Below, one piece after another: positions 32,533-33,029 of a stretch of DNA of 64,000 nt. The DNA is from a virus. The stretch's first letter is position 1. Every line of letters begins with the position of its first letter. The notes under the pieces are model-generated. The model was not told where the DNA came from. It was given only the letters and a program-made list of their open reading frames with translations, and did not search any database. The position numbers and the translations under genes were made by a program. The DNA lies in IMG/VR virus record IMGVR_UViG_3300033145_001320, positions 17,768-81,767 of that record; one strand, written 5' to 3'.

Positions 32533-32625
32533 ACCTCAAATAATTGGGTGGACTAGTTATTAGTATAATTACAATAGTTATCTATTATAGTTACCTAACA
32601 CTAATCCACCCCAAGCTAAGGAGGT
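32533..32625 (-). ncRNA. Structured RNA unit E (hairpin)
   Basis: The outer stem ACCTC/GAGGT encloses an inner stem GGGTGGA/TCCACCC (32546-32552 with 32605-32611) and an A/T-rich loop with further self-complementarity. It directly abuts unit D and precedes the Ro-like leader. It could be part of the array or an attenuator; no tRNA-like arms. Confidence 0.5.
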
Positions 32626-32627
32626 TT

Positions 32628-32750
32628 CTTGAAAGTGTAAATGTATTATGTTTGGGTGAAAAACAGGTATCGAAACCTGCTACCTATTGCTTTAAATGCA
32701 ATTGCTCTACCAAATGAGCTATTTTCAGAAAATACAAAAAGTCTTTCAAG
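32628..32750 (-). ncRNA. Y-RNA-like unit D with tRNA-like domain (UUA anticodon position)
   Basis: An 8-bp perfect outer stem CTTGAAAG/CTTTCAAG (plus three more pairs around a bulged C) and an inner TGTATT/AATACA stem enclose a tRNA-like domain: D arm GCTC-loop with GG-GAGC, anticodon arm ATTGC-ATTTAAA-GCAAT and T arm GCAGG-TTTCGATA-CCTGT (loop of 8). The anticodon-position triplet is UUA, which would read UAA. The acceptor stem is 6 A/U-rich pairs plus a mismatch. Nested in the longer hairpin and next to the Ro-like gene, it fits a tRNA-mimicking Y RNA better than a tRNA; a degenerate suppressor tRNA is the alternative. Confidence 0.62.
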
Positions 32751-32760
32751 AGAAAAATAG

Positions 32761-32820
32761 ATGGAGGAATATATGCAGTTGTTGATTTTAAAGTAATCTG
32801 AATCTGCATAAAGTCTCCAT
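32761..32820 (-). ncRNA. Structured RNA unit C
   Basis: The outer stem ATGGAG/CTCCAT, the conserved GACTT on the 5' side and the inner stem TATGCAG/CTGCATA repeat the plan of units A, B and D at 60 nt. The loop (25 nt) has a small GATT/AATC hairpin but no full tRNA-like arms. The sequences of both stems differ from the other units while remaining complementary. Confidence 0.55.
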
Positions 32821-32836
32821 GAAATAAACATAGTGA

Positions 32837-32908
32837 AATAGAAGCTGTAAATGTAATTGTAGTTATTTTCTCCAAATGAAAAACAGAAATTACATTAAGT
32901 CTTCTATT
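32837..32908 (-). ncRNA. Structured RNA unit B
   Basis: The outer stem AATAGAAG/CTTCTATT (8 bp, perfect) and the inner stem AATGTAATT/AATTACATT (9 bp, perfect) flank an internal loop with GACTT on one side and TTTACAG-like on the other. The terminal loop includes TTTTC-ATTTGGA-GAAAA, which resembles the D arm of units A and D (ATTTGG). It contains no anticodon or T arm. Confidence 0.6.
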
Positions 32909-32920
32909 AGAAATTTTGAA

Positions 32921-33029
32921 GCCCGAAGTGGAAATTGTATTATGTTGAGGGACTTGAACCCTATACGCTTGTTTATCATACAAGTGCTGAACCAATCAGC
33001 TATCAGAAAATACAAAAAGTCTTCTGGGC
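32921..33029 (-). ncRNA. Y-RNA-like unit A with tRNA-like domain (GAU anticodon position)
   Basis: The outer stem GCCC-A-GAAG/CTTCGGGC (8 bp with a bulged A) and inner stem TTGTATT/AATACAA enclose a tRNA-like domain: D arm GCTG-ATTGGTT-CAGC, anticodon arm CTTGT-ATGATAA-ACAAG (GAU, isoleucine type) and a T arm with TTCAAGT loop. The expected acceptor stem is absent: the 5' flank cannot pair with the 3' flank in tRNA register, whereas the longer stems can. A 21-nt segment of the 5' side (33003-33023) is identical to that of unit D (32725-32745). A tRNA finder may call it tRNA-Ile; the missing acceptor argues against a working tRNA. Confidence 0.65.

What the first reader, a model, noticed from the sequence alone, without database searches (positions are those of the whole stretch)
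32533..33029. Tandem array of Y-RNA-like structured RNAs next to a Ro60-like gene
Between a promoter and the Ro-like (TROVE-VWA) gene, four units (A-D) follow one plan: an outer stem, an internal loop with conserved GACTT on the 5' side and TTT(A/C)CA on the 3' side of most units, an inner stem, then a terminal domain. The outer stems have different sequences but all pair (GCCCaGAAG/CTTCGGGC; AATAGAAG/CTTCTATT; ATGGAG/CTCCAT; CTTGAAAG/CTTTCAAG), which is covariation within one locus. Units are separated by 10-16 nt. Bacterial Rsr genes are known to sit near Y RNAs that mimic tRNAs; a tandem four-unit array with graded loss of the tRNA part in a jumbo phage would be new to my knowledge.
Basis: partly seen in the sequence, partly recalled or inferred. 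Interest (0 to 1): 0.93.

Follow-up and report, generated by a model that had tools for sequence, protein, structure and literature searches.

The report
Phage Ro60-linked tRNA-mimic RNA array
A large phage carries a row of four small folded RNAs, two of them with a tRNA look-alike inside, directly ahead of a gene for a ring-shaped RNA-binding protein like human Ro60, and the same RNA-plus-protein set recurs in other phages and in many bacteria with its tRNA part wired differently from the catalogued bacterial Y RNAs.

Summary
Units A-D on the minus strand fold as described (region z = -7.2). A and D contain tRNA-like domains above Rfam's gathering score. The neighbouring 506-aa protein has no Pfam or PDB sequence match, but its AlphaFold model (pLDDT 90) has only Ro60/TROVE structures as PDB matches at E <= 0.001. 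Four related phage loci, a plasmid and many bacteria carry RNAs of the same plan upstream of the same gene. In 28 trimmed basal modules all 11 base pairs show compensatory change (96.8% of cells paired; 52% shuffled). The Ro-like gene is followed by an ARPP gene in 148 of 151 testable loci; no ARPP was seen within about 1.5 kb of seven genuine TROVE genes.

The main surprise is topology. Catalogued bacterial Y RNA (YrlA) is a circularly permuted tRNA: T arm, acceptor hairpin, D arm. Here the order is natural (D, anticodon, T arm), with the Ro-type stem at the acceptor position. Rfam's YrlA and YrlB do not match. The anticodon arm is kept, but some units have six-base anticodon loops, no full acceptor stem, or a UUA anticodon, which suggests mimicry rather than decoding.

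Verdict: a real, widespread new variant of Ro-Y RNA particles. Ro binding, transcription and function are inferred, not shown.

The parts
33099..33116 (-). Probable phage promoter motif GTCTATATATATTAATAA, about 70 nt upstream of unit A
   Evidence: Found 3 times in the window with <=2 mismatches against 0.07 expected; same motif just upstream of the arrays in L093, L094, L096 (twice). Promoter function is inferred.
32921..33029 (-). Unit A: outer stem GCCCaGAAG/CTTCGGGC, inner stem TTGTATT/AATACAA, tRNA-like domain (D arm, anticodon arm with GAU, T arm), no acceptor stem
   Evidence: Fold; Rfam tRNA 31.3 bits, model positions 8-63
32947..33002 (-). tRNA-like domain of unit A, natural arm order
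   Evidence: RF00005 linear alignment 8-63/71
32837..32908 (-). Unit B: outer stem AATAGAAG/CTTCTATT, inner stem AATGTAATT/AATTACATT, short apical hairpin, no tRNA-like domain
   Evidence: Fold and descriptor
32761..32820 (-). Unit C: outer stem ATGGAG/CTCCAT, inner stem TATGCAG/CTGCATA, short apex; close in sequence to the third unit of Alkaliphilus plasmid pB6464
   Evidence: Fold and descriptor; plasmid sequence
32627..32751 (-). Unit D: outer stem TCTTGAAAG/CTTTCAAGA, inner stem TGTATT/AATACA, full tRNA-like domain with an A/U-rich acceptor-like stem and anticodon UUA
   Evidence: Fold; Rfam tRNA 47.7 bits 1-71/71; ARAGORN 'tRNA-Stop'
32655..32728 (-). tRNA-like domain of unit D, natural arm order
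   Evidence: RF00005 47.7 bits
32544..32614 (-). Long hairpin after unit D; related phages have a hairpin at the same place in the array, sequence not conserved
   Evidence: z = -6.7; hairpins at L093:759-817, L094 about 4748-4816, L096:4741-4816
30923..32443 (-). Divergent Ro60-like protein, 506 aa: helical-repeat ring plus VWA domain with MIDAS residues D338-x-S340-x-S342
   Evidence: AlphaFold2 pLDDT 90.1; the 8 PDB matches at E <= 0.001 are all Ro60/TROVE; hhalign to a TROVE alignment prob 94.6, E 6.9e-8
29940..30908 (-). ARPP-1 domain protein (PF20208), 14 nt downstream of the Ro-like gene, part of the conserved gene pair
   Evidence: Pfam 77.3 bits; same-strand ARPP downstream in 148 of 151 eligible Ro-like loci

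Best explanation
The interval encodes an array of small non-coding RNAs that work as the Y RNAs of a phage-encoded, highly diverged Ro60 protein. Each unit has a basal module (outer stem, ACU internal loop, inner stem, UUCAGA) that the Ro-like ring most likely binds, and an apical part that either mimics a tRNA body (A, D) or is a plain cap (B, C). The tRNA mimics tether the Ro ring to, or shield it with, enzymes that handle tRNA (by analogy with YrlA and PNPase), so that damaged or misfolded tRNAs are degraded, held or protected during infection; the capped units occupy and gate the ring. The ARPP protein made from the same operon is a partner, perhaps acting on ribose ends. Shown here: RNA structure and covariation, the Ro60 fold, the conserved array-Ro-ARPP order, natural arm order. 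Inferred: transcription as discrete RNAs, Ro binding, partner and role.
For: Fold and covariation. Ro60 fold. RNAs of the same plan upstream of the same gene in four related phage contigs (L093, L094, L096, L097; Ro-like 39-54% identical), plasmid pB6464, planctomycetes, myxobacteria, Bacteroidetes and others. In 1,200 nt upstream of 97 group-A loci the descriptor finds 44 units in 28 loci, against 1 in shuffles and 4 downstream. Reverse test: the consensus ACTTTATGTRATTTCAGA occurs in only two IMG/VR contigs, both of them Ro-like loci already in hand. Units with and without a tRNA domain share one basal module, as expected if the stem is the protein-binding part. YrlA binds Rsr by its basal stem and PNPase by its tRNA-like domain (PMC8394870).
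Against: No transcript, binding or genetic data. The canonical bacterial Y RNA signature in the YrlA model (GNCGAA at the stem) is absent from the array. Rfam YrlA and YrlB give no match in the array. Only 28 of 97 group-A loci pass the descriptor, so either the motif drifts or some loci lack the RNAs; group B gives 4 hits in 49 loci against 1 in shuffles. Unit A alone is only modestly stable (z = -1.9). No PNPase in the window was looked for; the tether partner is analogy.
Confidence: 0.7

Rival explanations
1. tRNA decoys: the tRNA-like units, which keep the anticodon arm, soak up host anticodon nucleases or other tRNA-attacking defence enzymes; Ro and ARPP protect or recycle the decoys.
For: Unlike YrlA, 23 of 24 natural-order units keep a perfect 5-bp anticodon stem, 20 a 7-nt loop and 21 have U33, with many different anticodons. 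Bacterial Ro-like genes often lie inside large tRNA arrays. A competitive-inhibitor role for YrlA was proposed in PMC7790460.
Against: Units B and C have no anticodon arm but share the basal module. Four units (L017, L028, L100, L107) have 6-nt loops. Not exclusive with the main explanation.
Confidence: 0.25
2. Ordinary phage tRNA genes whose flanks happen to pair, processed to working tRNAs.
For: Unit D scores 47.7 bits as tRNA. L093 unit 3 is a complete tRNA-Gln with an encoded CCA end and L097 units 1-2 are called Lys and His.
Against: Unit A and several related units lack an acceptor stem; unit D would read a stop codon; B and C carry no tRNA yet keep the basal stems; the flanking stems covary; four units elsewhere have 6-nt anticodon loops.
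Confidence: 0.1
3. A cis-acting leader of the Ro-like mRNA: the hairpins control the Ro-ARPP operon, for example by Ro binding its own leader.
For: Same strand, directly upstream, no intrinsic terminator found between array and gene.
Against: Up to seven tandem modules of varied apex, complete tRNA-like bodies, and variable distance to the gene are unusual for a leader; no switch-like alternative pairing was seen, though none was searched for systematically.
Confidence: 0.1
4. Canonical YrlA-type Y RNAs of an ordinary bacterial-type Rsr, merely too diverged for Rfam and Pfam.
For: General plan (Ro stem plus tRNA-like domain) is shared. L097 unit 3 and the L037 unit do have permuted order.
Against: The natural arm order cannot be reached from the permuted YrlA order by point changes. 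A different basal motif, a strict ARPP partner and no ARPP near seven genuine TROVE genes mark a separate lineage.
Confidence: 0.12

Closest known systems
YrlA / YrlB bacterial Y RNAs (Rfam RF02553, RF02565) with Rsr (Deinococcus, Salmonella)
   Same: Encoded beside a Ro60-type gene; basal stem from the 5' and 3' ends; tRNA-like domain with D and T arms in at least one RNA, simpler partner RNAs without it
   Different: YrlA order is T arm, acceptor-like hairpin, D arm (circularly permuted, no anticodon arm); here D, anticodon, T arm in natural order with the Ro-type stem at the acceptor position, an ACU/UUCAGA basal motif instead of GNCGAA, no RF02553 or RF02565 match, 3-7 modules per related phage array
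Ro60 / TROVE proteins (PF05731; PDB 1YVP, 2I91; Thermus phage phiLo Ro60 9L5Y)
   Same: Fold: helical ring plus VWA with MIDAS residues; best PDB matches E 1e-6 to 7e-5, TM up to 0.58
   Different: About 11-14% identity over the structural alignments, no PF05731 match, nearly constant ARPP neighbour
Putative Y RNAs and Rsr of Listeria phage CKA15 and mycobacteriophage Y RNAs (PMC12282133 and its citation of Chen et al. 2014)
   Same: Phage-encoded Ro-like protein with abundant short RNAs nearby on the same strand
   Different: Their RNA topology is not described in the text I could read; relation to this family not tested
ARPP domain systems (PMC9503650)
   Same: ARPP-1/ARPP-2 domain protein
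   Different: That paper reports ARPP with ARG, HIRAN, WYL and deacetylase partners; a Ro/VWA partner is not mentioned in the passages read
TROVE genes in archaeal tRNA gene clusters (PMC6333295)
   Same: Ro-type gene inside a tRNA cluster, as found here for several bacterial Ro-like loci
   Different: Those are annotated TROVE proteins; Y-like units were not described in the passages read

Membership tests
Bacterial Y RNA (as a functional kind) | Encoded near a Ro60-type gene | tested here: met
   The array, hairpin included, ends about 100 nt before a Ro60-fold gene; same in related phages and bacteria
Bacterial Y RNA (as a functional kind) | Long basal stem formed by 5' and 3' ends with an internal loop | tested here: met
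   Fold and covariation
Bacterial Y RNA (as a functional kind) | At least one RNA per locus with a tRNA-like domain | tested here: met
   Units A and D, Rfam tRNA 31.3 and 47.7 bits
Bacterial Y RNA (as a functional kind) | RNA is bound by the Ro protein | not testable with these tools
   Needs pull-down or binding assay
YrlA (RF02553) | Covariance-model score above 69 bits | tested here: not met
   No match in own genome nor in the array at E <= 10
YrlA (RF02553) | Circularly permuted order T arm, acceptor hairpin, D arm, no anticodon arm | tested here: not met
   Linear match to RF00005 in natural order against the YrlA consensus
YrlA (RF02553) | GNCGAA element in the Ro-binding stem (read from the RF02553 consensus; motif also recalled from Chen et al. 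2014, not re-read) | tested here: not met
   No GNCGAA, no CGAA on the minus strand of 32533-33029
Ro60 / TROVE fold | Helical-repeat ring plus VWA with Ro60 structures as best matches | tested here: met
   hhalign 94.6%
TROVE (PF05731) | Pfam match above cut-off | tested here: not met
   No match at E <= 10 for the window; none in ten relatives
ARPP-1 (PF20208) | Pfam match above cut-off | tested here: met
   77.3 bits, cut-off 27
Functional tRNA genes | Full acceptor stem and usable sense anticodon | tested here: not met
   Unit A matches only model positions 8-63; unit D anticodon UUA. Some related units do look complete (L093 unit 3)

The most novel reading that the evidence does not exclude
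A separate, so far unnamed lineage of Ro ribonucleoproteins is shared by large phages, plasmids and many bacterial phyla: a Ro60-fold protein invisible to Pfam, a near-obligate ARPP partner, and its own family of Y-like RNAs in which an unpermuted tRNA body, anticodon arm included, is mounted on the Ro-binding stem at the acceptor position, often inside tRNA gene arrays where such RNAs are annotated as tRNAs.
Probability: 0.6. Interest if true: 0.9.

Novelty: new variant of a known kind. Interest (0 to 1): 0.82.

Why it matters
Bacterial Y RNAs are a long-standing puzzle: they mimic tRNA, but why is unclear. A second way of mounting a tRNA body on a Ro-type stem, apparently a separate evolutionary solution and tied to a strict protein partner, would show that tRNA mimicry is the point of these RNAs and would let the role of each arm be tested. 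It also gives a covariance-supported RNA motif and a gene pair by which the system can be found across phages and bacteria, links Ro particles to tRNA arrays and so to phage-host conflict over tRNA, and warns that some annotated tRNA genes in such arrays are not tRNAs.

Tried and rejected
Single-protein and two-protein scans of viral contigs found only LR756500's twin. An exact 19-mer from units A/D gave five contigs with no RNA family match at E <= 0.1, taken as chance. Pfam, PHROGs, NCBIfam, PADLOC and PDB sequence searches do not name the Ro-like protein. A covariance model from MAFFT alignment A7 caught only the D, anticodon and T arms because the 3' sides misalign, so it was not used. sigma-70 promoter and intrinsic-terminator scans were uninformative. 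LR756500 (same Ro-ARPP pair) has odd tRNA-like elements upstream that I could not fit to the plan with confidence. The Nostoc plasmid loci (Ro-like plus ARPP-2) gave no Rfam RNA match and ARAGORN found no tRNA there. Literature: Chen et al. 2014, Sim et al. 2020 and the 6CU1 structure paper are not in the library, so I could not check whether they mention unpermuted Y RNAs.

Full report
CHECKING THE OBSERVATION. The minus strand of 32533-33029 was read and folded. Unit by unit, z is -1.9 (A), -3.9 (B), -3.3 (C), -3.7 (D), and -6.7 for a further hairpin at 32544-32614. Rfam finds tRNA-like domains in A (31.3 bits, positions 8-63 of 71) and D (47.7 bits, 1-71) and no YrlA or YrlB match even at E <= 10. 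These are the only two tRNA matches in the 81.8-kb virus record that holds the window.

THE PROTEIN. The gene just downstream (30923-32443) has no TROVE match in Pfam, nor do ten relatives; NCBIfam, PADLOC and the PDB by sequence do not name it. A search that started from one 26%-identical phage gene and a plasmid gene grew into an alignment of 48 relatives (A5). The resulting AlphaFold2 model is confident (pLDDT 90.1, pTM 0.86). In the PDB it matches, at E <= 0.001, eight chains and nothing else: all are Ro60 or TROVE structures, among them Ro60 of Thermus phage phiLo. Profile comparison with seven genuine TROVE proteins gives 94.6% probability, E 6.9e-8, over 364 columns of ring and VWA domain. 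The MIDAS residues D-x-S-x-S are invariant in A5. So 'Ro60-like' is right at the level of fold, in a lineage Pfam does not see.

THE ARRAY IN RELATIVES. Four distinct related phage loci (L093, L094, L096, L097; Ro-like 39-54% identical; L095 duplicates L094) and plasmid pB6464 of Alkaliphilus have structured RNAs in the same place. In L094 and L096 even the small gene upstream of the array is the same (52-55% identical), and the motif GTCTATATATATTAATAA lies ahead of the array in the window and, with one or two changed bases, in L093, L094 and L096. A descriptor (outer stem, ACU, inner stem, 3' loop, outer stem) finds 3-6 units per related phage array, against 0.15-0.55 in shuffles. Over 97 group-A loci it finds 44 units in 28 loci in the 1,200 nt upstream of the gene, against 1 in shuffles, 9 antisense and 4 downstream. 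Conversely, the 18-base consensus ACTTTATGTRATTTCAGA occurs in only two IMG/VR contigs, both Ro-like loci already known here.

COVARIATION. For 22 modules, swapping 3' strands among units lowers outer-stem pairing from 100% to a mean of 63% (maximum 76% in 10,000 permutations; the stems were chosen as paired, so the contrast rather than the 100% is the evidence). For 28 modules, including bacterial ones, 96.8% of cells are standard pairs against 52.2% shuffled, the covariation score is 1.176 against 0.270, all 11 pairs have changes on both sides, and sliding the register abolishes it. These modules were trimmed to put the stems in register and the apical letters between the arms are a constant filler; the stems are native except that row winB has one extra letter.

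TOPOLOGY. The Rfam alignment of a YrlA found near a genuine TROVE gene shows the catalogued order: Ro stem, T arm, acceptor-like hairpin, D arm, Ro stem. The crystal structure of YrlA is described as a circular permutation of tRNA (PMC11472068). Units A and D, and about 30 units upstream of Ro-like genes in other phages and in planctomycetes, myxobacteria, Bacteroidetes, Kapaibacteria, cyanobacteria and others, instead have D arm, anticodon arm and T arm in natural order, with the Ro-type stem where the acceptor stem would be. In 24 such units 23 have a perfect 5-bp anticodon stem, 20 a 7-nt loop and 21 U33, but four have 6-nt loops, many lack a full acceptor stem and unit D reads UUA. Two units (L097 unit 3 and one in L037) have permuted order on the same kind of basal stem. 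The tRNA body has therefore been mounted on the stem in more than one way.

GENE PAIR. An ARPP gene follows the Ro-like gene on the same strand in 100 of 103 eligible group-A loci and 48 of 48 group-B loci (not corrected for near-identical contigs). None was found within about 1.5 kb of seven genuine TROVE genes. The paper that defined ARPP lists other partners and suggests action on ribose moieties (PMC9503650).

HOW IT LIKELY WORKS. Shown: structure, covariation, fold, gene order, arm order. Inferred: the RNAs are made from the conserved upstream motif, the basal module binds the Ro ring, units with tRNA bodies bring in tRNA-handling enzymes as YrlA brings PNPase (PMC8394870), and capped units gate the ring. 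The main rival for the tRNA body is a decoy for tRNA-attacking host nucleases, a role also proposed for YrlA (PMC7790460). Plain tRNA genes and a cis-leader are less likely, for the reasons given with each rival.

KNOWN OR NEW. Ro proteins in jumbo phages (PMC7824862, PMC7765460), Y RNAs in mycobacteriophages and suspected in Listeria phage CKA15 (PMC12282133), and TROVE genes in archaeal tRNA clusters (PMC6333295) are known. I found no account of natural-order tRNA bodies on Y RNAs, of this Ro lineage, or of the Ro-ARPP pair, but key papers are not in the library. I therefore file it as a new variant of a known kind: it works like a Y RNA-Ro particle, but it is not a member of Rfam YrlA and not of Pfam TROVE.

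Noticed in passing
L014, L017, L019, L020, L022, L026, L027, L037, L099: In several bacteria and one phage contig the Ro-like gene lies inside large same-strand tRNA arrays (up to 37 ARAGORN tRNAs around it); some of these 'tRNAs' next to the gene are natural-order Y-like units.
   Followed up: partly
L022 with L167 (Minicystis rosea chromosome about 8.255-8.267 Mb): A genuine TROVE gene sits about 4 kb upstream of the Ro-like gene in the same tRNA array, so both Ro lineages share one locus.
   Followed up: no
L097:4837-4984 and L037:3551-3683: Units with permuted arm order (T arm, acceptor hairpin, D arm) on the same basal stem; L097 unit 3 also keeps an anticodon-like arm.
   Followed up: partly
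L001:1815-1950 and L001:2206-2350 (LR756500): Two tRNA-like elements whose acceptor stem is interrupted by 60-90 nt between acceptor 5' strand and D arm, with a shared ACTC(T/A)AAG..ACAG motif; a third element at about 2000-2190 partly fits the outer-ACU-inner-UUCAGA plan.
   Followed up: partly
L093:565-640: Complete tRNA-Gln (TTG) with encoded CCA end embedded in a Y-like stem; could be a dual-use RNA.
   Followed up: no
L028, L100, L107, L017 (unit coordinates): Natural-order units with 6-nt anticodon loops, unusable for normal decoding.
   Followed up: no
L114-L166: A second phage subgroup of Ro-like proteins (mostly about 540-570 aa), also with ARPP downstream; tRNA-Met(CAT) lies 0.5-2 kb upstream in most of these loci; few units found by the descriptor.
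   Followed up: no
window 43303-43320 and 47057-47074 (-): Further copies of the array's upstream motif, probably phage promoters.
   Followed up: no
window 34024-41138 (-): Adjacent genes for RNA polymerase beta-like (34024-38112) and beta'-like (38115-41138, NADFDGD motif read from the sequence) subunits.
   Followed up: no
window 25299-28007 (-): DUF2201 metallopeptidase/VWA-like gene next to an AAA ATPase gene, a second VWA-bearing pair near the Ro locus.
   Followed up: no
L009:7158-7985 (plasmid pB6464): A 436-kb Alkaliphilus plasmid carries TerD, three Y-like units, Ro-like and ARPP in a row.
   Followed up: partly
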